Source: a virus
Reading direction: 5' to 3' (one strand)
IMG/VR virus record: IMGVR_UViG_3300023116_000434
Location: 1-21,111 of that record
DNA length: 21,111 nucleotides
Below are positions 2,430 through 21,111 of this stretch, one piece after another. The translations under genes and the position numbers were made by a program. The first letter of the stretch is position 1, and every line of letters starts with the position of its first letter. The notes beneath the pieces are model-generated. The model did not search any database and was not told where the DNA came from. It was given only the letters and a program-made list of their open reading frames with translations.

Positions 2430-2663
2430 CTAGTTGCTCCTTTGTTTCTCAAACGCAATCGAATCTGCTGCCGCACGCATGTCGTTCACCAGTTGCTCAA
2501 GTGCTTCTAATTTCGCGTGTATTCGCTCCCGCTCATCGGGTTTGCGCTCACGCTGCCACGCTTCAAAAAACTCATACTTGACCCGGCCGACTAACGTCGA
2601 AAAGTCCGGGTCGTCGAACATCCTCTGGATGTTCTCAAGATACTGCTGCTCGGTTTTGGCCAT
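2430..2663 (-). CDS. Small helical phage protein between portal and scaffold (77 aa)
   Basis: A 77-aa, highly charged protein beginning MAKTEQQYLENIQ and ending with a long predicted helix (DERERIHAKLEALEQLVNDM) likely to form a coiled coil. The ATG at 2663 lies within the 3' end of the portal gene, overlapping it by 29 bases, which points to translational coupling. The stop is followed after 4 bases by the scaffold start. I recognise such small proteins between portal and scaffold in SU10-like podoviruses but no function has a sequence signature here. A head-assembly accessory role is inferred from position only. Confidence 0.72.
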   Translation of the reverse strand: MAKTEQQYLENIQRMFDDPDFSTLVGRVKYEFFEAWQRERKPDERERIHAKLEALEQLVNDMRAAADSIAFEKQRSN

Positions 2664-4776
2664 TGACTGTGCTCGCTATTTGCCTAACCACTTCTCTGTC
2701 TCGTTCAGCATTCGCCTTGATCTCGGCAATGTTCACCTGGGCGCCGTAACGCGCCTCAAGCTCTGCCGCCTTCAAGATGATGTCCGCTTCATCTTTGTCT
2801 CTTCGCCGATCGTCTTCGCGCATCATCTTTTCCCGCTCTAGCTCTAGCTCGGCCTGCTTCTTCTGCATATCGACTTGCAGTGCTTGCATCTGCAGTTGGA
2901 TCAGTTGCTGATTCGGATCAGGCTTCTGCTCTTGCTGCTGGGCCTGGGCCTGCATCTGCTGCATGGCTTGTGTCGGATCGGTGAAGAATCGATTGATGTC
3001 CTTGAACCCGGCAAGCTCAAGCATTTGCGTGAGCGTCGCGTAGTAGTTGGTCGGGCTGACCATCGGGTTCTGTGGGCCGAGTTGCTGCATGATCATTTCT
3101 TGCTTCTGAGCAACCTGCTGCAACATGCTCATGCGCTCTTGATCTGATCCGCGACCGAGATGGACGTTACTCACCACGTCCATGTCTGCGTTCCAGATGT
3201 CAGGCGACATCGGCACAAACTGATTGCGCAATCGAATCATTCGCGGTCGATCTTGGTATTGAATGATCAAGCGCAGGAGACCTTTGTAGAGGCGCGTCAT
3301 GCCGTTTTCGGCGAACAGCCGGCTAATCATCTCAATACGCTGTTGCGCCGCTGCGATCGTCTGCTGCACGGCCATAAGCGTCGATGATTGAAGTTGCTCT
3401 GGCGCCAGACCATCGGCCGCTCGGCTGATGCCGGTTCGGTTCTCTCGGAGTTGGTCGAGATACTCCATCATGGGGAATGCGGCCTGGCCGACGTAAGGCA
3501 GTGTGAACGGCACGACTGCACCGGGGTTTCGCATGCGAATAATCCCGCCGGCTTCGACGTTCATCACGTCTTCGAGTGAGGCTTGCCCTTCTACAATGCC
3601 GACTCTTGGATGAGTAGACATAGCAAGAGAATCAAGACTTGCACGTAGCACTGCCGACTTGATTCTCTGAATGTCCATCGTGAGGTCCGCGATCGACATA
3701 CCAAAGAAAGCATGCGGCTCAGGGTCAGGGCAGAAATGAGCGAAGGGAATATCATCGGCTGGCTCGTTGCGCATGACTTCGTAGTTCGGACCCATGCAGC
3801 AAAGCTTGCGCAGCTCGGCAATGCCGTCTCCATCAACGTCCATGCGCATGTAGGCTTCAACATAAAGGACTCGCTTGCGAGAAGGGTCGTCGGTGTAGTC
3901 GCGATTCTCCTGCTGGCTGAGCATCCGCTCGCGAGCCTCGACGTTGTACAAGGTGAAGTCATCGTCTTCAGTTTCATAATTGGTGACCGTGTCGAAGTCG
4001 TAACCCATTTCGACAAGCTCACTGACGGTAGCGTAGCGGCGGTGCGCGATGAGATCCGCGTCCGCAAAGGAGCGAGCGTGGCGCGAAACGAGAACCTCCT
4101 CGGGAGGCACCGCCGCTACTTTGACTTTGCCGTTCACCTGGCGATGAATGACAGAAACGTCATGTAGCATTTGCGGCTGACCTGTTTGCGAATCGACCTG
4201 GTCGTTGCTCGCGCTGCTGGAAAGCATTCTGACTTCGATGTTGGGATCTGCGTTCAGTGCCGCGAGCGCCTGATCATCGAGTCGTTTTAGTTCGTATGTT
4301 TTTACTTCTTCGATCTCGTCCCAGTAATACTTCAGGAATCCACTGCCCTTGACGAGCGCGTCTTTAAACGTCTGGTACATTATCGAAACAAAAGCTTCGT
4401 CCTGATCTTGGTTCAGAACGTAGTTGACGTAGTCGGTCGCCTGCTTTGCGATCTCAACGTCCTCTGGCCCGGTTGGCGCGTACTCGACAACGTGATCGCT
4501 GCCGCAAAAGACGCGCATCAAACTCGGGAGCATGGCCTGCACGGTATCGCGCACGTCCATCGTCATCGCAGTTGAGCGGCCTTCTTGCTCGTTGCCGAAT
4601 GGTTCGCCGTTGTAATACTCGGCGGCTTCAGCCCGGCCAGGGCTTACCGTGTTGTCAATGAAATCGACAGCGTCTTCAATCGCTAGACGCGCGATCGCGT
4701 TGATCTGCTCTTCATCCATCTCCGGGTTTTCTTCGACGTACTGCTCGTCGTCATCGTAATAATCTAATTCGCTCAT
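2635..4776 (-). CDS. Portal protein, podovirus (SU10/P22-like) type
   Basis: A 713-aa protein, in the size range of podovirus portals. The portal is the dodecameric ring at the head vertex through which DNA is packaged and ejected. Sequence features: an acidic N-terminus (DYYDDDEQ), a segment typical of the family around residues 55-170 (PFGNEQEGRSTAMTMDVRDT; VKGSGFLKYYWDE), a wing/stem region with FAHFCPDPEPHAFFGMS and DLTMDIQRIKSAVLRASLD, then the tunnel-loop/crown region and a very Gln-rich helical C-terminus (about 600-690) that could form the barrel. The ATG at 4776 overlaps the stop of the ADP-ribosyltransferase-like gene by 4 bases (ATGA). The gene lies downstream of large terminase and upstream of scaffold, as expected. 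Confidence 0.9.
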   Translation of the reverse strand: MSELDYYDDDEQYVEENPEMDEEQINAIARLAIEDAVDFIDNTVSPGRAEAAEYYNGEPFGNEQEGRSTAMTMDVRDTVQAMLPSLMRVFCGSDHVVEYAPTGPEDVEIAKQATDYVNYVLNQDQDEAFVSIMYQTFKDALVKGSGFLKYYWDEIEEVKTYELKRLDDQALAALNADPNIEVRMLSSSASNDQVDSQTGQPQMLHDVSVIHRQVNGKVKVAAVPPEEVLVSRHARSFADADLIAHRRYATVSELVEMGYDFDTVTNYETEDDDFTLYNVEARERMLSQQENRDYTDDPSRKRVLYVEAYMRMDVDGDGIAELRKLCCMGPNYEVMRNEPADDIPFAHFCPDPEPHAFFGMSIADLTMDIQRIKSAVLRASLDSLAMSTHPRVGIVEGQASLEDVMNVEAGGIIRMRNPGAVVPFTLPYVGQAAFPMMEYLDQLRENRTGISRAADGLAPEQLQSSTLMAVQQTIAAAQQRIEMISRLFAENGMTRLYKGLLRLIIQYQDRPRMIRLRNQFVPMSPDIWNADMDVVSNVHLGRGSDQERMSMLQQVAQKQEMIMQQLGPQNPMVSPTNYYATLTQMLELAGFKDINRFFTDPTQAMQQMQAQAQQQEQKPDPNQQLIQLQMQALQVDMQKKQAELELEREKMMREDDRRRDKDEADIILKAAELEARYGAQVNIAEIKANAERDREVVRQIASTVNGQNRAAVS

Positions 4777-7109
4777 AATGGGCTCATGTCTAATAATGAT
4801 TCGCCAACGAGCTGCGCACGGCGCGGGAGCTGGCCAAAGAGTGATGTGATGGGCTCAATGATCGGCATCGCAGGCGCCAGCAATCCGGCAAGAAGCTGCA
4901 TTCCGTCATCGCTCAATTGCTGACCGATTTGAGTTCGAGGTTGGTAATCCATAGCTGCTAATCGAGCTTGGCTTGCTTGGTCAATCTGACTAGTCGGTCT
5001 ACTGCTGGTCAGCGATTGAATAAGTGTGTGGGGCGCATTAGCGATCGGTGCAATAATCGCAGAGCCAGCGTTTGCTGCGGCGTCGAGGATGCCGGCTCCG
5101 TAATCGGCGAGCGTGGGCTCGGCTTGTGACGGCTCTTTAATCGCGGCAGCGCCTAGCAATCCAGCACCGCCTGCTGCGGTCATTGCTGCGGGGGTTGCGG
5201 AGCCGTCTTGCTTGTTTTGCCTCAAATAGTTATCGACACCCTCAGCCCATTGCTCGTTGAACGGCTGATAGAGTTTGGGATTCATGACCAGTGAGCCGGT
5301 CTTCTGCGACTCGGTGAACGGCTGTCCTGCAACGTTGGTTGCTTTGTCTAGCTCTGCAAAAACATCTGGGTACATCACTCGAGCTGGCACACTTTGCTCG
5401 AGGCCGCCAATGTACGTGCCGGGAATGATCGTGTCATAGCTTTGATGCGGCGCATTCGGCATAGTCGGCGCGTTGGGGTCGGCAGAGAACATGCTGAACC
5501 CAGAGCTGCCGATCGGTGCGTTCGCTAACTCGGGCTGTAGAATTTCTGCGTGAGCGTCTTCTTTGACCGGAAAACCAACGTCGCGATAGCGCGACTTAGA
5601 CATTTCATCAACAAAAACAGATCGAAGCTTGCCTGCGCCCTTCTGTGGATAGTCTCCGCGACCCATTAACTGGTCCATTGCGTCGGGATGGTTAAGACCC
5701 ACCCACTCAGGTCGTAGCTTTCTTAGCTCGGCATCGAATTTCTTAATGTCACCCTTTTTGATTGGCAGCGAGCGAGCTTGCTGAAGCATTGACTCTGCCA
5801 CCGGCGTACTAAAATTTACCGCCTCTTTGCCCATCGCCGAAAATATGCCAACGGGCTCCATGCCGGTTTCATCTGCAGCCAAAGCAAAGTTGCCCTGCTT
5901 TTTTCGAGCAGCATCTGCCATCGAAGCCCAACCATACCCTTGGTCCTGGTAGCGCAGCGGGAAGTTGCTGCCGCCCTCAACCTGAACAGGCGACTCTAGA
6001 TTCACGCCGCCGATTGTCTCGATCACTTTGCCAGTGGTGCTCGTGTCGCCCGATACAGGAACGCCAACCTTGCCTACTAGGTCATCGACTGTGAGCAAGT
6101 TACGCTCACCGATATCGAGCGTTTGCGTTTTGTTCTCAACATCAGAACGGAGCTTCTCTCGAGCCCTAAAAGCTTTGCTCTCACGCATCGCTTTGTCGTA
6201 TTTGGTAAGCGCCGACTTAACCGCTGTTGGGTTCTGAGCGCTTTCGACGGTGAGCATGCCGAGACGGATTAAGTTTGCTGGCGTAGTGAGGAAGCCAGCT
6301 TCAGCCTCATTCGATTGCTGCAGCATCGCTGCGGCGACCGGGATCGTGACGCCGTACTTGCGAGCGATGTCGATTAGTCGATCATCGAAAATAACGAAGT
6401 TTTTTGATTGTTGTGGATCGGGTTTATGACGAGTGAATGCGTCACCGTATTCGATACCGGGCACACCCTCGGCTTTCATAATTTCAGCGCCCAGAGGGGA
6501 TATATGGAACCTGCGGAAATGGTCGTGATCAGATTCTGGATCGCCGAATATGTTTTTGCCTTTTGGAGACTTTTCGGCAAACCTAGCGTAAGCGCGCTTG
6601 ACGATATCTGGCTGGTCTTCCAGCGGGCTATCGAGTTTTAAAAAGTCTTTTCGATCGGCGCGAATGTTGACTTCGTATAGCCTGCCAAGTTTTGGCCCGT
6701 AGTCTGTGATCTCTTTTGCGACCGCTTTTGCGGTACTTGCTAAATCGGGGTCGTCAGCATATCGAGCCACAAGCTCTTCGGGGCTAGCGTGCAGCATGGC
6801 GTCTTCGTACATCTGCATGCGCTCGTAATCGCCCTTACCCTCTGCTGCCTTGTACTTGCGCATCAGGAAATCTTCGTAATCAAGATCGCGCTTTGTCAGT
6901 TGATCGCGATAATTCCTGGCAACATCCTCGGACTCAGCAAAGTACAAGCCTTGCCCGTACATATTGGCGCCTTCGCCGGTCAGCGGGTAATCGGTACTAA
7001 AACGATCAAAATCATGCGGAGAGCCGTGATAGGCCCGAATTCCAGGCGAGAGCAAGCCGGCATCGAGTGCTGCCTTAGTGGCTTGCTTGGCGGCTCCGAG
7101 CAACGCCAT
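4773..7109 (-). CDS. Polyvalent protein with N-terminal ADP-ribosyltransferase-like domain
   Basis: A 778-aa multidomain protein. Residues about 25-250 match the ADP-ribosyltransferase fold of the H-Y-[E] class seen in phage polyvalent proteins: YHGSPHDFDRF with His28, GEGANMYGQGLYFAES with Tyr56 and Tyr67, and a final strand KNFVIFDDRLIDI. By analogy with PARP (EYIVYD), the catalytic Glu position is Asn237 here. Residues about 320-620 (DLVGKVGVPVSGDTSTTG; FSAMGKEAVNFS; HQSYDTIIPGTYIGG) look like a recurring polyvalent-protein associated domain with no known activity. The C-terminal 150 residues are Ala/Gly-rich with hydrophobic helices, suggesting membrane interaction. The gene starts directly after the lysine-rich gene stop and overlaps portal by 4 bases, so it is made with head proteins. 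It may be packaged and ejected into the host; this is an inference. Confidence 0.78.
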   Translation of the reverse strand: MALLGAAKQATKAALDAGLLSPGIRAYHGSPHDFDRFSTDYPLTGEGANMYGQGLYFAESEDVARNYRDQLTKRDLDYEDFLMRKYKAAEGKGDYERMQMYEDAMLHASPEELVARYADDPDLASTAKAVAKEITDYGPKLGRLYEVNIRADRKDFLKLDSPLEDQPDIVKRAYARFAEKSPKGKNIFGDPESDHDHFRRFHISPLGAEIMKAEGVPGIEYGDAFTRHKPDPQQSKNFVIFDDRLIDIARKYGVTIPVAAAMLQQSNEAEAGFLTTPANLIRLGMLTVESAQNPTAVKSALTKYDKAMRESKAFRAREKLRSDVENKTQTLDIGERNLLTVDDLVGKVGVPVSGDTSTTGKVIETIGGVNLESPVQVEGGSNFPLRYQDQGYGWASMADAARKKQGNFALAADETGMEPVGIFSAMGKEAVNFSTPVAESMLQQARSLPIKKGDIKKFDAELRKLRPEWVGLNHPDAMDQLMGRGDYPQKGAGKLRSVFVDEMSKSRYRDVGFPVKEDAHAEILQPELANAPIGSSGFSMFSADPNAPTMPNAPHQSYDTIIPGTYIGGLEQSVPARVMYPDVFAELDKATNVAGQPFTESQKTGSLVMNPKLYQPFNEQWAEGVDNYLRQNKQDGSATPAAMTAAGGAGLLGAAAIKEPSQAEPTLADYGAGILDAAANAGSAIIAPIANAPHTLIQSLTSSRPTSQIDQASQARLAAMDYQPRTQIGQQLSDDGMQLLAGLLAPAMPIIEPITSLFGQLPRRAQLVGESLLDMSPL

Positions 7110-7259
7110 CTATTTCTTCTTTTTGGGGCTTTTCTTTTTCTTTTTGTCAGCAATGCCCATCATGATGACGATGTCTGCTGCTGCTTCGCGGTGGCCACCG
7201 GGGCCGTTTCGGTAGGGTTTTTTCTTTCCGGTTGCTTCTAAGTATTCGGTCATCGCCAT
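7110..7259 (-). CDS. Lysine-rich phage microprotein (49 aa)
   Basis: The frame is open back to 7433, inside the terminase gene, but the only start with a strong ribosome binding site is the ATG at 7259 (GGGGAG six bases upstream), giving a 49-aa protein. It has a short folded-looking part (MAMTEYLEATGKKKPYRNG, then HREAAADIVIMMGIAD) and ends in a tail made almost only of Lys with one Ser-Pro. Such a tail would bind nucleic acid or an acidic protein partner. The stop abuts the start of the next gene with no gap, so the two are probably translationally coupled. It lies 85 bases after large terminase. I recall similar Lys-tailed small proteins between terminase and portal in related podoviruses, with no assigned function. 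Confidence 0.68.
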   Translation of the reverse strand: MAMTEYLEATGKKKPYRNGPGGHREAAADIVIMMGIADKKKKKSPKKKK

Positions 7260-7344: not shown

Positions 7345-8757
7345 CTATACAACAGAAAGGTTGCGTCGAATCGGCTTAGTCCAATTACTGGCCATCGATG
7401 ATCCCTTGATGACCGTGGCGGCCTCAGTTGCAAAAGTAAGACATACGGCGTCTGCGCGGTCAGGGCTCGCCATTCCCCGACGCCGCATCTCGTCCTTGCT
7501 TTCGATTTGAAGCTTGCCGCTGCTCGTAAACTTATACTTAACAGCGACCAGCTCGGCCAGCAACAGATCGTCCTTTGGCAGACTCACGTCGCGCGCCTCG
7601 AGCCAGGCTTTCAGCTTGAACCAAAGCTCAGCTCGAAGGTTCGTATAAGTGGTCCTGAGCGCCGGGCTTTCAGCCGTGTTAATGCCCACGGCCGGCAGGC
7701 CCAGCTCGCGCAGGCGATCGCACACGCCACCACCAACGCCTATCGAGTCCACACAAATCTGCATCGGCTCTTGCCTCGGCTGACAGCTCTCGTATTCGGC
7801 CACCACGGCGCCTGTGAGCTGCATTAAGTCGAGCCCCCGCCAAGTCTCCATTGCTAAAATCTTTCGCCCCTGGCGCTTGCAGAGCACGCTGCTGGCGCTC
7901 CCGAATCGCGCAACGTCCAGCCCCCAGATAATCGCCTCTTCATCGCTGATCTCAATATCACGCACCTGCGCGCTTTCGACCAGCTCTAGCGGGATGACCG
8001 TGTCATCGTCGCGGGCCGGGAACTCTCCGAGCACGCGAACGCGAAACGCGTTGCTCTCCTCCCCATACCTCACCTTCATCTCTTCGATGTACTGCTCGCT
8101 CACCATCGGCGAGTCAGCGCAGCTCACCTTGCGCGTCCACCACTCGCCGGCTTGCGTGTGGTGCGTGTCGAAGAAAAACCCGCTCGATCGAGTTGGGTTG
8201 CCGAGCAGAATCGTGCAGGCGTTCTCGCCGGACATCGACCCGGCTGCGGCCTCAAACACTTGCTCAGGGATACCAGACGCCTCGTCACAAATGAGCAACA
8301 CGTTATCAGCATGCACGCCCTGCAGCGCTTCTGGCGTCTCGGCACGGCTAGTTCGAGCGCTGATAAAGCATTCGCTCGGCGCCGATTTGTGCGCGATACG
8401 ATCGGTCTTCACCTCGAGGATGTCCTTAAGCGCAATCGGCAGCTCATTAATCCAGCGCTTTAGCTCCGCGAACAGCGCGTCAAAAAGCTGCGCGCTGGTC
8501 GGCGCCGTCACAACGATCTTCACCGGGTATCGAGTGATGAGATACCAAAGCATCGTCCAGGCAGCGGCCGTGGATTTGCCCACGCCATGCCCCGATCGAA
8601 TAGAAATCTTACGCTCGCCATCCTGAACGGCCTGCAGCAATTCTGCCTGCCATGGCTGCACTTTGATCTTGAGCACATGCTCGACAAACGCCACCGGGTC
8701 GTGTCGGTAGCGCTTCAGGAAATCGATATAAGGATTAGGGGGCAGTGCTTTGGGCAT
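7345..8757 (-). CDS. terL: Terminase large subunit (packaging ATPase-nuclease)
   Basis: A 470-aa large terminase, the motor that pumps DNA into the prohead and cuts the concatemer. The ATPase domain shows an adenine-binding region (VQPWQAELL, about 33-41), Walker A SGHGVGKS (55-62), a coupling/motif III region and Walker B LLICDE (154-159) followed by ASG. The nuclease domain starts with the acidic strand IIWGLDVARFG (Asp281 as metal ligand), has a second acidic strand ICVDSIGVGGG (about 333-344) and ends with SPDRADAVCLTFA, the third acidic position. Length is normal for the family. The ATG at 8757 lies within the serine recombinase gene (23-base overlap), so expression is tied to that gene. 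The small subunit is not adjacent but about 1.7 kb upstream, beyond the recombinase and a rightward island. Confidence 0.93.
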   Translation of the reverse strand: MPKALPPNPYIDFLKRYRHDPVAFVEHVLKIKVQPWQAELLQAVQDGERKISIRSGHGVGKSTAAAWTMLWYLITRYPVKIVVTAPTSAQLFDALFAELKRWINELPIALKDILEVKTDRIAHKSAPSECFISARTSRAETPEALQGVHADNVLLICDEASGIPEQVFEAAAGSMSGENACTILLGNPTRSSGFFFDTHHTQAGEWWTRKVSCADSPMVSEQYIEEMKVRYGEESNAFRVRVLGEFPARDDDTVIPLELVESAQVRDIEISDEEAIIWGLDVARFGSASSVLCKRQGRKILAMETWRGLDLMQLTGAVVAEYESCQPRQEPMQICVDSIGVGGGVCDRLRELGLPAVGINTAESPALRTTYTNLRAELWFKLKAWLEARDVSLPKDDLLLAELVAVKYKFTSSGKLQIESKDEMRRRGMASPDRADAVCLTFATEAATVIKGSSMASNWTKPIRRNLSVV

Positions 8758-9409
8758 CGAGTGCTCGCTTAACTTTCATGTGGGAGGTGGGGAGCTTGTA
8801 TTTCGCGGAGACAAGTTGCGCGATGTCGCGATAGCTTTTCCCCTCGTCTCGAAGCACGCGCATCATGCCGATCGCTTCGCGCCGGAAAGGCAGCTCGACT
8901 ACCTTGCTCTCTTTGCCCTCGCCCTCAACCTTGCAGCCCCAGGGCGCTTCGCCGCCGATAAACCCGCCCCGCTCGCGCTTCGCGCGCCGGCCGCGCATCG
9001 TGCGCTCCTTGATCACGCGCCGCTCGTGGCCGGCGAACGCCGCCATGATCTCGAGCATGAGGCGCGCAGTCAGGTTGCCATCATCGGTCACGTCGCCATG
9101 GCCGTTCAAGAACAAACGCACGCCGCGCGCCTTGAGGTCGTGAATCGTGTTCAGGCAGTCGCGCGCGTCGCGGCTGAATCGATCGAGGGCGCTGCAGATA
9201 ATGATGTCGCCCGGCTGAATATCGAGAGTCGCGACAGCCGGCCTGGCGAAGAACGGCACGCTGCCGCTCACGCCGGGGTCTTGCAAGAACGTGATGTCCG
9301 TGGGGAGTTGGTTCGCGAGAGCCACGCCCTGGATCATCGATTGTTGCGTTGCGAGGGACGTGCCCTCGGCTTGCTCTTCTGTGCTTACGCGGGTGTATCC
9401 GTAGATCAT
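8735..9409 (-). CDS. Serine recombinase (resolvase/invertase family)
   Basis: A 224-aa small serine recombinase that would cut and rejoin DNA through a covalent serine link. The catalytic domain opens IYGYTRVSTEEQ with Ser9 as nucleophile, continues with the QDPGVSGSVPF loop and carries the conserved SALDRFSRD motif with Arg77 and Arg80. The long helix that follows (LMLEIMAAFAGHERRVIKERTMRG) is the dimerisation helix, then comes RAKRERGGFIGGEAPWGC, and a C-terminal helix-turn-helix (YRDIAQLVSAKYKLPTSHMKVKRAL). Length and architecture fit resolvases and invertases rather than large phage integrases. The ATG at 9409 has GGAGGAG upstream. Its 3' end overlaps terL by 23 bases. It may act on a site inside the phage genome or have come in with a mobile cassette; a target site was not identified. 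Confidence 0.88.
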   Translation of the reverse strand: MIYGYTRVSTEEQAEGTSLATQQSMIQGVALANQLPTDITFLQDPGVSGSVPFFARPAVATLDIQPGDIIICSALDRFSRDARDCLNTIHDLKARGVRLFLNGHGDVTDDGNLTARLMLEIMAAFAGHERRVIKERTMRGRRAKRERGGFIGGEAPWGCKVEGEGKESKVVELPFRREAIGMMRVLRDEGKSYRDIAQLVSAKYKLPTSHMKVKRALDAQSTAP

Positions 9410-17393: not shown

Positions 17394-18440
17394 ATGGTTG
17401 CCCTGCCGGAGGAGCAGCACACCACCCTCAAACTTGTGGAGCGAGCGACAGAGGAGGCGCAGGCCAGCGGTGCTGGCCGCGCCCACCTCGGCGCAAGCTT
17501 GATCGGTGATGAGTGCCAGAAAAAGCTGTGGTTCATTTTTCGTTGGGCTTCGCAAACCAAACATCCTGCTCGCCTGCTTCGATTGTTTAATCGCGGCGCC
17601 CGCGAGGAAGAGGTGTTTAACTTCTTGCTGCGCCAGGCTGGCCTCAGCGTGTGGGACGTTGACCCGGACACCAATCAGCAATGGCGCGTTGAGGCGGTCG
17701 GCGGTCACTTTGGCGGCTCACTCGATGGCGTGGTCCAGGGTTTGGTTGAGGCGCCCAAGACGCCGCATGTGAGCGAGCAGAAGACGCACAACGAGAAGAG
17801 CTTCAAGAATGTGCGCGACAAGGGCGTCAAAGAGGCGAAGCCCGAGCACTACGCGCAGATGCAAACTTATATGCACCTGATGGGCCTCGAGCGCGCGTTG
17901 TACCAGGCTGTCAACAAGAACGACGACGAGCTGTACTACGAGCGCGTGAAGTACGACAAGCAGGTTGCTGAGGGCTTGCTCGCGAAAGCCGAGCGAATCA
18001 TTACGAGCGACCTGCCGCCCGAGGGGATCAGTCACGATCCTGCGTTCTTCAAATGCAAATACTGCGACCAGAGCAGCGTCTGTCACGGCAATCGAATCCC
18101 GCAAGCCAATTGCAGAACGTGTTGTTTTGCGACGCCCGAGCTGGACGGAGACGCGCGCTGGTCATGCAGCAAGCATCAAAAAGATTTAGGGAATGAAGAC
18201 CAACGTCTCGGCTGCGAACAGCATTTGTTCATCCCTGCGCTGCTTACCAACTGGGCTGAATGCATCGACGGCGATGATGACGCGGTGCGCTATCGCAACA
18301 AATCGACCGGCGCCGAGTTTGTGAATGGCGAAGGCGGGTTCACGTCCAAAGAGATGGCGGCGGTGATCGACGTGAGCGTCCTTGGCGATCCGATCGTTGA
18401 CACGTTCAAGCAGGAATTCGGTGCGGAGGTCGTTGGTTAG
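17394..18440 (+). CDS. Fe-S PD-(D/E)XK exonuclease, RecB/Cas4-like
   Basis: A 348-aa nuclease that probably resects DNA ends for Sak4. RecB-family motifs are in order: Glu around residues 71-73 (AREEEVF), FGGSLDGV with Asp111, SEQKTHNEK with Glu128 and Lys130, and QMQTYMHL with Gln155 and Tyr159. An Fe-S cluster of the Cas4/AddB type is indicated by Cys41 (GDECQKKLWF) with Cys221, Cys224 and Cys230 (CKYCDQSSVC). Directly after it is an extra Cys cluster (Cys240, 243, 244, 258, 274 plus His261), enough for a zinc site and not part of the basic family plan as I know it. The ATG at 17394 is 3 bases past the preceding stop with GGAG upstream. The gene ends one base before the methyltransferase start. 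Confidence 0.86.
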   Translation: MVALPEEQHTTLKLVERATEEAQASGAGRAHLGASLIGDECQKKLWFIFRWASQTKHPARLLRLFNRGAREEEVFNFLLRQAGLSVWDVDPDTNQQWRVEAVGGHFGGSLDGVVQGLVEAPKTPHVSEQKTHNEKSFKNVRDKGVKEAKPEHYAQMQTYMHLMGLERALYQAVNKNDDELYYERVKYDKQVAEGLLAKAERIITSDLPPEGISHDPAFFKCKYCDQSSVCHGNRIPQANCRTCCFATPELDGDARWSCSKHQKDLGNEDQRLGCEQHLFIPALLTNWAECIDGDDDAVRYRNKSTGAEFVNGEGGFTSKEMAAVIDVSVLGDPIVDTFKQEFGAEVVG

Positions 18441-19423
18441 TGTGGATAGTGCCGAAAACCCTGCAAGCGTCATTGCCTTTTGCGCTGGATACGGTGGCAT
18501 CGAGCGAGGACTTGAACTCGCTGGCGTCAACCATCGAGTCGTCGCTTATGTGGAGATCGAAGCCTTCGCCATTGCGAACTTGGTTGCAAAGATGGAAGCG
18601 GGAGCCTTGGCTTCAGCGCCTATTTGGTCGGATCTTAAAACCTTCCCAGCACACCTGTTTCGAGATCGAGTGGATCTCGTCACTGGCGGCTACCCATGTC
18701 AGCCATTTAGCAACGCAGGCAAACGACGCGGAACAGAAGACCCTAGACACCTTTGGCCCTACCTCAAAGACCATGTGCGGACAATTAGACCTGTTCAGTG
18801 TTTCTTTGAAAACGTCGAAGGACACATCAATCGAGGACTCCAAGAAGTTGTCGGAGACTTGGAAGAACTTGGTTACGAAGCGACGTGGGGAGTATTTAGT
18901 GCGTCAGAAGTTGGCGCACCGCATCAAAGAAAACGAGTCTTCATCTTGGCCGACGCCAACGGTGGACTCTTCAACAGTTCGCAACAAGAAGTACAACCAA
19001 GGTGGAATGCCGTTACAGATGGCAGCAAAACTTTGGCCGACCCCAACAGCGAGCGACAGCGAAGGAGGACCGAGGCAACAGGACGGCAAACGGGGCCGAG
19101 CTCTAAAGGACTTGCCCAACGCGCCGTGGATGACACCGTTAGTGCAGGACTCACGGCACAGCGGAACCAATCCGTCGAAGAACGGAGCGAGGATGTTACT
19201 AGCCAACCAAGTGCATTGGCCGACGCCGACATCGAGAGACTGGAAGGACACACCTGGGATGGCAACACAAGCTGGGAGCCGAAGCAGGCTGGACCAATTA
19301 CCCAGAGCAGTTTTTGCAAACAATGGGGATCAGAAATCTGGTCAGTTGAACCCAACGTGGGTCGAGTGGTTGATGGGTCTACCTTTAGGGTGGACAGACT
19401 TAGGCTTTTGGGCAACGGAGTAG
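18440..19423 (+). CDS. Overprinted open frame inside the methyltransferase gene (up to 327 aa)
   Basis: A second frame on the same strand, shifted one base relative to the methyltransferase, stays open for 327 codons. It is not random-looking: it has three WPTPT repeats (residues 170-174, 199-203, 260-264), WKNLVTKRRGEYLVRQKLAHR before the first, SRDWKD after the third, and LNPTWVEWLMGLPLGWTDL at 303-321, only six residues before the stop. From memory these match a recurring phage protein family with unclear function. The conserved methyltransferase motifs and these motifs are encoded by the same bases: QRKRVFILADA lies over IKENESSSWPTPT, and GRVVDGSTFRVDRL over WVEWLMGLPLGWTDL. The start is uncertain: GTG 18440, or ATG at 18548 or 18773, none with a strong ribosome binding site. 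Translation could also arise by frameshifting from the main gene. It may instead be a by-product of codon bias. Confidence 0.45.
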   Translation: MWIVPKTLQASLPFALDTVASSEDLNSLASTIESSLMWRSKPSPLRTWLQRWKREPWLQRLFGRILKPSQHTCFEIEWISSLAATHVSHLATQANDAEQKTLDTFGPTSKTMCGQLDLFSVSLKTSKDTSIEDSKKLSETWKNLVTKRRGEYLVRQKLAHRIKENESSSWPTPTVDSSTVRNKKYNQGGMPLQMAAKLWPTPTASDSEGGPRQQDGKRGRALKDLPNAPWMTPLVQDSRHSGTNPSKNGARMLLANQVHWPTPTSRDWKDTPGMATQAGSRSRLDQLPRAVFANNGDQKSGQLNPTWVEWLMGLPLGWTDLGFWATE

Positions 19424-19497
19424 TGCCGCAGCAGGCAGCAAAAGCATGGATAGTTTTGAGTGAGCAGGTAAATGAGAAAGATGACGATCGAGTTTGA
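18442..19497 (+). CDS. dcm: C5-cytosine DNA methyltransferase
   Basis: A 351-aa enzyme (GTG start) that would methylate cytosine at C5, probably to protect phage DNA from host restriction. Motifs in order: I FCAGYGGIERGLELAG (13-28), II-III EIEAF and WSDLKTF, IV GGYPCQPFS with catalytic Cys86, VI FENVEG (122-127), VIII QRKRVFILA (162-170), IX-X GRVVDGSTFRVDRLRLLGNGVVPQQAAKAW at the C-terminus. Between VIII and IX the target-recognition part is polar, Gln/Arg/Ser-rich, with three LAD(A/P)(N/D) copies. The GTG at 18442 follows the exonuclease stop by one base with GGAGGT 11 bases before it; an ATG at 18382 in the same frame lies inside the exonuclease gene. Another open frame covers nearly the whole gene. 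Confidence 0.88.
   Translation: MDSAENPASVIAFCAGYGGIERGLELAGVNHRVVAYVEIEAFAIANLVAKMEAGALASAPIWSDLKTFPAHLFRDRVDLVTGGYPCQPFSNAGKRRGTEDPRHLWPYLKDHVRTIRPVQCFFENVEGHINRGLQEVVGDLEELGYEATWGVFSASEVGAPHQRKRVFILADANGGLFNSSQQEVQPRWNAVTDGSKTLADPNSERQRRRTEATGRQTGPSSKGLAQRAVDDTVSAGLTAQRNQSVEERSEDVTSQPSALADADIERLEGHTWDGNTSWEPKQAGPITQSSFCKQWGSEIWSVEPNVGRVVDGSTFRVDRLRLLGNGVVPQQAAKAWIVLSEQVNEKDDDRV
18947..19231 (+). repeat. Three dispersed direct repeats TGGCCGACSCCRAC inside the methyltransferase gene
   Basis: Copies of a 14-base element begin at 18947, 19034 and 19217 (TGGCCGACGCCAAC, TGGCCGACCCCAAC, TGGCCGACGCCGAC). They encode LADAN/LADPN/LADAD in the methyltransferase frame and WPTPT in the overlapping frame. 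They could support slippage or internal recombination, or simply reflect repeated protein motifs. Confidence 0.7.
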
Positions 19498-20463: not shown

Positions 20464-20711
20464 ACACCGTATCAAGAGAAAAGCTCGCCAGCATGATCGG
20501 GATCAGCGAAGACACCGTTAGAGGATGGACCGATCGACATTTCGAGCGAGGTTTACACTACACTGTCATTGGCAAGACAACGTTGTATTACCTGGAAGAG
20601 GTTGGCGAATGGCTCGAATCGCAGAGGGGATCGAAGAAAGGGGCTCAGGGCTCCGCATCCATTTCTCATGGAAGGGCCGCAGGTACAAAGAGACTCTTGC
20701 TGGCCCGGTAA
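20454..20711 (+). CDS. Excisionase-like helix-turn-helix protein
   Basis: An 85-aa basic protein. From the GTG at 20454 it reads VELNTVSREKLASMIGISEDTVRGWTDRHFERGLHYTVIGKTTLYYLEEVGEWLESQR in pieces: a winged helix-turn-helix (residues about 5-30) and the wing HYTVIGKTTLYYLEEVGEWL, a pattern shared by phage excisionases that bend attachment-site DNA. The frame is open upstream to 20388, but that part lies over the membrane-protein gene and has no ribosome binding site. It overlaps the integrase start by 103 bases, the usual arrangement of xis and int. Whether it drives excision or only represses is not visible. Confidence 0.72.
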   Translation: MELNTVSREKLASMIGISEDTVRGWTDRHFERGLHYTVIGKTTLYYLEEVGEWLESQRGSKKGAQGSASISHGRAAGTKRLLLAR

Positions 20712-21111
20712 CTGCCGCGCTCATAAAGCGCGCAATCAAGCGCCGCGAGTGGCTGCTGTCGCGACTTCAGGTTGGGCTTCCGATCGAAGAGCAATCAGGC
20801 AAGCTCTTGCGCAACGCCGCGATCGATTGGCTTGATTCCCTAGACGTTAAGCGCTCCACGCTGATGAGCTACCAGGCGCTTTATCGATCGCACTGGCAAG
20901 TTTGGGAATCGCTCGCGGTCGATAGCATTACGCCCGGCATGATCAAGTCCCTGATCAATCAGAAGGACATCTCGTCCAAGACCAAGCGTAATGCGTTGAT
21001 CGTGCTGTCGGGCATCTTGCGTCACGCAGACGTTAATCCGAACCCCTGCGCAAACATTCGGTTTCGCAAGCAACAGAAAAAACCGATCGAGCGTTATCGA
21101 CCGGCAGAACT
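20609..21111 (+). CDS. int: Tyrosine integrase, N-terminal part (runs off the right edge)
   Basis: The first 167 codons of a phage integrase. The N-terminus is an arm-type DNA-binding domain of the DUF3596 kind: EERGSGLRIHFSWKGRRYKETLAG, then ALIKRAIKRREWLLSRLQVG (residues about 8-56). Next is a SAM-like core-binding domain: LLRNAAIDWLDSLDVKRSTLMSYQ, WESLAVDSITPGMIKSLIN, SSKTKRNALIVLSGILRHA (about 70-145), followed by NPNPCANI and RYRPAEL leading to the catalytic domain outside the window. The R-H-R-Y residues are therefore not seen. The ATG at 20609 has GAGG 7 bases upstream. The arm domain indicates control by excisionase and probably attachment arms nearby. Confidence 0.88.
   Translation, partial: MARIAEGIEERGSGLRIHFSWKGRRYKETLAGPVTAALIKRAIKRREWLLSRLQVGLPIEEQSGKLLRNAAIDWLDSLDVKRSTLMSYQALYRSHWQVWESLAVDSITPGMIKSLINQKDISSKTKRNALIVLSGILRHADVNPNPCANIRFRKQQKKPIERYRPAE

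What the first reader, a model, noticed from the sequence alone, without database searches (positions are those of the whole stretch)
4773..7109. ADP-ribosyltransferase-like effector built into the head operon, with Asn at the catalytic Glu position
Between large terminase and portal lies a 778-aa polyvalent protein whose N-terminus has the H-Y parts of an H-Y-E ADP-ribosyltransferase (His28, Tyr56, Tyr67). In the final strand the position of the PARP-type Glu is Asn237 (KNFVIFDD). Such change usually means loss of polymer-forming ability, mono-transferase activity or a different chemistry. Since it is translated with head proteins and ends in hydrophobic Ala/Gly-rich helices, it may be packaged and ejected to modify a host target.
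Basis: partly seen in the sequence, partly recalled or inferred. Interest (0 to 1): 0.66.

Follow-up and report, generated by a model that had tools for sequence, protein, structure and literature searches.

The report
Phage head-operon ADP-ribosyltransferase, asparagine variant
A phage carries, wedged between two of its DNA-packaging genes, a modular protein with an NAD-using enzyme domain that is probably packed into the virus particle and injected into the host; the odd asparagine in its active site is the fixed signature of a large, poorly catalogued subfamily in which the usual catalytic glutamate may have moved to a neighbouring loop.

Summary
The minus-strand ORF 4773-7109 (778 aa) lies between terminase and portal, overlapping portal by ATGA. 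A confident AlphaFold model (pLDDT 89) has ADP-ribosyltransferase (ART) strand order. Its best PDB match is an ART-bearing protein of a cyanophage pre-ejectosome, then RES toxins, a diphtheria-toxin homologue and tankyrase.

The Asn is not peculiar to this phage. It is invariant in the phage subfamily (87/87 aligned) and Cys in five bacterial relatives, so it is a selected signature, not decay. Every HGSP-motif ART examined also has a donor-loop Glu (GxGEG; Glu46 here), which Glu-type ARTs lack. A relocated catalytic carboxylate is the novel, untested reading.

The gene is a recombining cassette: ART, a phage-only second domain and a constant C-terminal tail assort independently between TerL and portal, under purifying selection. 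A hydrophobic Ala/Gly segment directly follows the ART family-wide.

It is a polyvalent protein of the known kind, with an ART below Pfam ART-PolyVal's cutoff. Packaging, NAD use and target are inferred; published virion proteomics of phage PhiGT1 (Table S3) could settle packaging.

The parts
4773..7109 (-). the finding: 778-aa modular (polyvalent) protein gene, wedged between a small ORF after terminase and the portal gene
6345..7049 (-). ART domain, residues 21-255 (strands 24-30, 55-58, 143-149, 218-222, 236-240, 246-252)
   Evidence: AF2; PDB fold match; Pfam; alignments
7026..7028 (-). His28 codon (motif I, AYHGSP)
   Evidence: H in 86/86 aligned relatives
6972..6974 (-). Glu46 codon (donor-loop GEG), candidate relocated catalytic carboxylate (inferred)
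   Evidence: E in 86/87; GEG in 92/92 HGSP-type ARTs, 1/52 of QIK-type ARTs
6942..6944 (-). Tyr56 codon (motif II, GLYF)
   Evidence: Y in 87/87
6909..6911 (-). Tyr67 codon (equivalent by position of the nicotinamide-stacking Tyr of PARPs; own knowledge)
   Evidence: Y 85, F 2 of 87
6399..6401 (-). Asn237 codon (motif III, KNFVIFDD, start of strand 5)
   Evidence: N in 87/87; C in five bacterial relatives
6309..6350 (-). hydrophobic Ala/Gly-rich segment directly after the ART (residues 254-267, VTIPVAAAMLQQSN)
   Evidence: family-wide enrichment
5190..6248 (-). second globular domain (residues 288-640), phage-specific, no Pfam family; model pLDDT 90.4
4776..5189 (-). constant C-terminal tail module (residues 641-778), kept when the other domains are swapped
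2635..4776 (-). portal protein (SU10 type), ATGA overlap with the ART gene
7345..8757 (-). terminase large subunit
7110..7259 (-). small Lys-rich ORF (about 49 aa) between terminase and the ART gene
   Evidence: (ORF list); its start codon is inferred

Best explanation
The gene encodes a head-packaged, ejected effector. Made together with terminase and portal, it is loaded into the capsid and enters the host with the DNA. Its N-terminal ART domain binds NAD+ with His28, Tyr56 and Tyr67 and transfers a single ADP-ribose to a host macromolecule early in infection, working like T4 Alt. Asn237 is the normal state of a large phage ART subfamily (H-Y-N; H-Y-C in some bacterial relatives). The carboxylate usually supplied by the strand-5 Glu is probably supplied by the invariant donor-loop Glu46, or by the substrate. 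Shown here: ART fold (predicted), residue positions and invariance, gene placement and coupling, modular recombination, purifying selection, hydrophobic segment. Inferred: packaging, ejection, NAD use, single transfer, host target, role of Glu46.
For: ART fold: AF2 pLDDT 89.4, strand order, N237 at the start of strand 5; PDB best match 9k3a_B, cyanophage A4 pre-ejectosome, E 5e-3, probability 0.99, then RES toxin, Albireti toxin and tankyrase. 9k3a_B is Anabaena phage A-4L gp27 over its full 1717 aa, and gp27 has its own YHG...GTYF motif. Invariance: H28 86/86, Y56 87/87, N237 87/87; N237 is one of ten invariant columns at 18% mean column identity, and the search patterns did not include motif III. 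N-type and E-type ARTs occur in one polypeptide in L194 and L025. Donor-loop GEG in 92/92 HGSP-type ARTs versus 1/52 QIK-type. Head context: ATGA overlap; neighbour genes of relatives are most often portal and terminase; the PhiGT1 gp5 homologue sits between portal and scaffold. Modular swaps: window vs L009 ART 63% but middle 97%; vs L016 ART 92% and tail 91% with the middle replaced. Selection: ART dN/dS about 0.10, middle 0.03. Literature: head-cluster polyvalent ARTs are predicted to be packaged and injected (PMC5512222, PMC9503650); mono-ARTs lacking the Glu can use substrate-assisted catalysis (PMC9189837).
Against: No virion proteomics or NAD assay exists for this protein. Foldseek E-values are modest (best 5e-3, none below 1e-3). 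The donor-loop/strand-5 pattern largely contrasts two clades, so it is few independent events and could reflect ancestry rather than compensation. QIK-type ARTs themselves vary at the strand-5 position (E 21, Q 7, T 5 and others of 52), so that residue may be dispensable for other reasons. The donor loop has low model confidence (about 67 for residues 41-50). Part of the GEG conservation is favoured by one of the search patterns, although members found by motif I alone also show it.
Confidence: 0.6

Rival explanations
1. The ART domain is an NAD+ hydrolase or phosphorylase (RES/KptA-like chemistry) rather than a macromolecule modifier: ejected into the host, it alters the NAD+ pool or removes an NAD-derived signal.
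For: RES toxins rank directly after the ejectosome protein in the fold search; the strand-5 Glu is absent; PMC9503650 states that RES and KptA ART-fold enzymes use phosphate attack and that some phage ARTs may be NADases.
Against: The motif I/II residues are PARP-like (HGS...GLYF, Tyr67) rather than RES-like; depleting NAD early would probably hurt a phage; the fold matches to RES are weak (E 0.13).
Confidence: 0.2
2. The ART domain is a pseudoenzyme that binds NAD+ or a nucleotide (sensor, shield or structural role in the head), with Asn as a non-catalytic residue.
For: The canonical Glu is absent in 87/87; the gene sits among structural genes; PARP9 (Q-Y-T) and PARP13 (Y-Y-V), listed as inactive, also lack the canonical triad.
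Against: The His, which PARP9 and PARP13 have lost, is invariant here, as is Tyr56; an invariant Asn plus an invariant donor-loop Glu is not the pattern of decay; N-type and E-type ARTs coexist in one polypeptide.
Confidence: 0.15
3. The protein is made with head genes but is not packaged: it acts late inside the infected cell, for example on the packaging machinery or to protect it.
For: PMC9503650 raises this alternative for ARTs next to portal and terminase; there is no proteomic evidence for this protein.
Against: The fold relative with a solved structure is a virion ejectosome component; hydrophobic segments and a constant tail would suit an ejected protein (inference); the second domain occurs in a phage protein annotated as structural.
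Confidence: 0.2

Closest known systems
ART domains of phage polyvalent proteins (Iyer et al. 2017, PMC5512222; Pfam PF18760 ART-PolyVal)
   Same: multi-domain phage protein in the head gene cluster; YHGS motif I, GxYF motif II; predicted packaged and injected
   Different: scores below PF18760's curated cutoff (23.8 vs 31.2 bits; eight relatives 23.0-30.0; one Roseovarius relative 33.4), matching only the first third of the model; published active site is H-Y-D, and full-length PF18760 matches read here have a strand-5 Glu, while this subfamily has Asn plus a donor-loop Glu
Anabaena cyanophage A-4L gp27 (PDB 9k3a chain B, pre-ejectosome)
   Same: ART-fold domain inside a virion-borne ejection protein; best fold match
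   Different: no detectable profile similarity, 10% identity, motif III region reads TTLVINP, much larger protein
PARP/tankyrase H-Y-E and mono-ART H-Y-hydrophobic enzymes
   Same: His, two Tyr and the strand-5 position are equivalent (fold match to tankyrase)
   Different: Asn instead of Glu or Ile/Leu/Tyr; no regulatory domains; donor-loop Glu
T4 Alt
   Same: working model: head-packaged, injected ART that modifies host proteins
   Different: R-S-E clade, not in a polyvalent protein (PMC5512222)
Sulfitobacter phage PhiGT1 gp5 (QLB38217.1)
   Same: 36% identical ART with Asn, encoded between portal and scaffold
   Different: 387 aa, no second domain; annotated hypothetical

Membership tests
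Pfam ART-PolyVal (PF18760) | score above the curated cutoff of 31.2 bits | tested here: not met
   23.8 bits, residues 26-73 only; eight relatives 23.0-30.0 bits, one relative 33.4: the subfamily lies at or just below the edge of the model
H-Y-[E/D] ART clade (PARP-like ARTs) | ART fold with His in strand 1 and Tyr in strand 2 | tested here: met
   AF2 model and strands, PDB fold matches, H28 and Y56 invariant
H-Y-[E/D] ART clade (PARP-like ARTs) | acidic residue at the strand-5 position | tested here: not met
   Asn in 87/87 aligned relatives, Cys in 5 bacterial ones; Asp242 lies five residues further and is less conserved (78/87)
Phage polyvalent proteins (Iyer et al. 2017) | two or more unrelated globular domains in one polypeptide with shuffled architectures | tested here: met
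   two confidently modelled domains; module swaps among relatives
Phage polyvalent proteins (Iyer et al. 2017) | encoded with virion/head genes in a portal-terminase phage | tested here: met
Phage polyvalent proteins (Iyer et al. 2017) | packaged in the virion and delivered to the host | not testable with these tools
   no proteomics for this phage; PhiGT1 Table S3 exists but supplements could not be read
Catalytically active ADP-ribosyltransferase | NAD-dependent transfer | not testable with these tools
   sequence and predicted fold only
YTH-like modified-base reader (considered for the second domain) | detectable profile or significant fold similarity to YTH | tested here: not met
   recurrent but insignificant fold hits (probability 0.18 or less); hhalign, Pfam and PDB profile negative

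The most novel reading that the evidence does not exclude
A widespread phage ART subfamily has moved its catalytic carboxylate from the canonical start of strand 5 to the donor loop (GxGEG, Glu46), leaving Asn or Cys at the old site: an active-site relocation within the ADP-ribosyltransferase fold, deployed as a capsid-delivered effector.
Probability: 0.27. Interest if true: 0.66.

Novelty: new variant of a known kind. Interest (0 to 1): 0.46.

Why it matters
It turns an apparent one-off oddity into a definable, large subfamily of phage ARTs that the current Pfam model under-detects, with a precise and cheap test (is the donor-loop Glu catalytic?). If the relocation is real, it changes how catalytic competence is read from ART sequences, where a missing strand-5 Glu is often taken as loss of activity. 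The cassette between terminase and portal also gives a natural system to ask which module directs virion packaging (the constant tail?) and which act on the host (the swapped domains?).

Tried and rejected
1) YTH-like identity for the second domain: many weak YTH hits and a shared W-x-S string, but hhalign, Pfam and a PDB sequence profile were negative; rejected. 2) Sequence search of the PDB with the full protein and the ART profile: only chance-type hits. 3) NCBIfam and PADLOC: nothing. 4) The Roseovarius podovirus RPP1 vRNAP ART as a near relative: only marginal similarity. 5) Searching bacterial genomes broadly with PF18760: 1 of 200 genomes, so cellular genomes were not a rich source. 6) Reading PhiGT1 virion mass-spectrometry data: the main text points to Table S3, not readable here. 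7) Measuring distances in the models: coordinates are not exposed. 8) C-terminal tail in annotated phages: no match. 9) First regex attempts at the donor-loop residue captured the wrong letter; redone. 10) The Fisher test is not used as evidence, because it contrasts clades rather than independent events.

Full report
CHECK OF THE OBSERVATION. The window is a 21,111-base virus record. The ORF at 4773-7109 is real but on the minus strand. It codes for 778 aa and lies between large terminase (7345-8757) and an SU10-type portal (2635-4776), followed by scaffold (1409-2476) and SU10-type capsid protein (426-1397). Its ATG directly follows the stop of a small Lys-rich ORF (TAG|ATG), and its TGA overlaps the portal ATG as ATGA, which is the usual arrangement for translational coupling.

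FOLD. Pfam ART-PolyVal matches residues 26-73 with E 8.6e-5 but below its curated cutoff. An AlphaFold2 model from 74 relatives reaches pLDDT 89.4, pTM 0.80, with strands 24-30, 55-58, 143-149, 218-222, 236-240 and 246-252. His28 is in the first, Tyr56 in the second, and Asn237 at the start of the fifth, the PARP Glu position. In the PDB the best match is 9k3a_B, a cyanophage A4 pre-ejectosome chain (E 5e-3, probability 0.99), followed by RES toxins, a diphtheria-toxin homologue and tankyrase. 9k3a_B is Anabaena phage A-4L gp27 over its full 1717 aa, and gp27 has its own YHG...GTYF motif. So a remote fold relative is an experimentally seen part of a virion ejection apparatus. None of these matches is below E 1e-3, so the fold assignment rests on the model, the motifs and the consistency of the hits together.

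THE ASPARAGINE. Among 98 unique homologues the residue at 237 is Asn in 87 of 87 that align there; the other 11 local alignments end earlier, and all seven of those printed in full show Asn by eye. Conservation equals that of His28 (86/86) and Tyr56 (87/87), in an alignment with 18% mean column identity and ten invariant columns. In a wider pattern-based count of 92 HGSP-type ARTs the site is Asn 82, Cys 5, unresolved 5; the Cys forms are in bacterial genomes such as Selenomonas and Veillonellaceae. The Asn is therefore a subfamily signature under strong constraint, not a loss in one phage.

A RELOCATED CARBOXYLATE? PF18760-type ARTs (marker AFxPxQIK) most often have Glu or Gln at the same site (E 21, Q 7 of 52; others vary). 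Only 1 of 52 has a GEG donor loop, whereas 92 of 92 HGSP-type ARTs have it. In a Marinobacter protein (L194) and in L025 both types occur in one polypeptide. A simple reading is that the carboxylate moved to the donor loop (Glu46). Cautions: the contrast is between clades, hence few independent events; one scan pattern favoured GEG, though members found through motif I alone also show it; the loop is the least certain part of the model; QIK-type ARTs without an acidic strand-5 residue also exist, so that site may be more tolerant than in PARPs.

A CASSETTE GENE. The second domain (288-640) models well (pLDDT 90.4, pTM 0.85), has no Pfam family or significant PDB fold, but matches 17 viral predicted structures at E 1e-3 or better, all phage proteins where named, including one annotated structural. 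Close relatives show independent assortment: L009 has an ART only 63% identical but a middle domain 97% identical; L016 has ART 92% and tail 91% but DUF7178 in place of the middle domain; L021 keeps only the tail; L013, L015 and L109 lack the ART. Those with both flanks held lie between terminase and portal. Comparison of synonymous and replacement changes shows purifying selection (ART about 0.10, middle 0.03). The C-terminal tail is the constant part and is my candidate for the packaging signal (inference). Directly after the ART, 58 relatives share a hydrophobic Ala/Gly-rich stretch (+1.22 vs -0.50; 69% above 1.0 vs 2% of background windows).

CONTEXT IN RELATIVES. Of 99 neighbour ORFs from 62 loci, the commonest families are portal and terminase (phrog_1216 20, phrog_2 15, phrog_156 11). 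PhiGT1 gp5, with the same Asn, lies between portal and scaffold. PhiGT1 virions were analysed by mass spectrometry, but the table is a supplement that could not be read.

MECHANISM AND LIMITS. Most likely: packaged with the DNA, ejected, and used early as a mono-ADP-ribosyltransferase on a host macromolecule. Polyvalent ARTs in head clusters were predicted to act this way, and mono-ARTs that lack the Glu can rely on substrate-assisted catalysis. Shown: predicted fold, residues, invariance, placement, mosaic evolution, selection. Inferred: packaging, NAD chemistry, target and the Glu46 role. Known kind: polyvalent phage protein with an ART. Variant: H-Y-N/C active site with donor-loop Glu, at or just below the edge of the Pfam model (eight relatives 23.0-30.0 bits, one 33.4, cutoff 31.2).

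Noticed in passing
window 18382-19497 and 18440-19423 (+): Two overlapping ORFs in different frames both have phage homologues: a C5 cytosine methyltransferase (PF00145 E 1.5e-32, phrog_363) and a second protein matching phrog_1008 'DNA methyltransferase' (E 1.3e-29), with 106 phage records holding relatives of the latter. About 980 bases seem to code for two real proteins.
   Followed up: partly
window 5190-6248 (-): Phage-specific second domain without a Pfam family, found in 67 viral loci and in several polyvalent-type proteins; nearly invariant polar residues (GD, WxS, H, Y) suggest an active or binding site.
   Followed up: partly
L016 291-3524; L021 6090-8429: The slot's middle domain is replaced by DUF7178, or both ART and middle domain are absent, while the tail stays constant: a recombining effector cassette before the portal gene.
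   Followed up: yes
domain junctions of the window protein and L016/L021 (e.g. RKYGVTIPVAAAMLQQSNEAEAG, LLAAPEESEAG): Junctions look like short signal-like segments: basic residues, hydrophobic stretch, then A-x-A-G or E-A-G; could be cleavage or membrane-insertion points.
   Followed up: no
L182, L183, L185, L187, L188: Bacterial relatives with Cys instead of Asn at the strand-5 position (GRC[FY]VVFDDKA), still with HGSP and GEG motifs.
   Followed up: partly
L194 (Marinobacter): One large protein alternates Asn-type and Glu-type ART domains.
   Followed up: partly
window 8735-9409 (-): A serine recombinase (resolvase type) sits between the terminase subunit genes; an integrase-like ORF runs off the right end (20525-21109), hinting at a temperate phage.
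   Followed up: no
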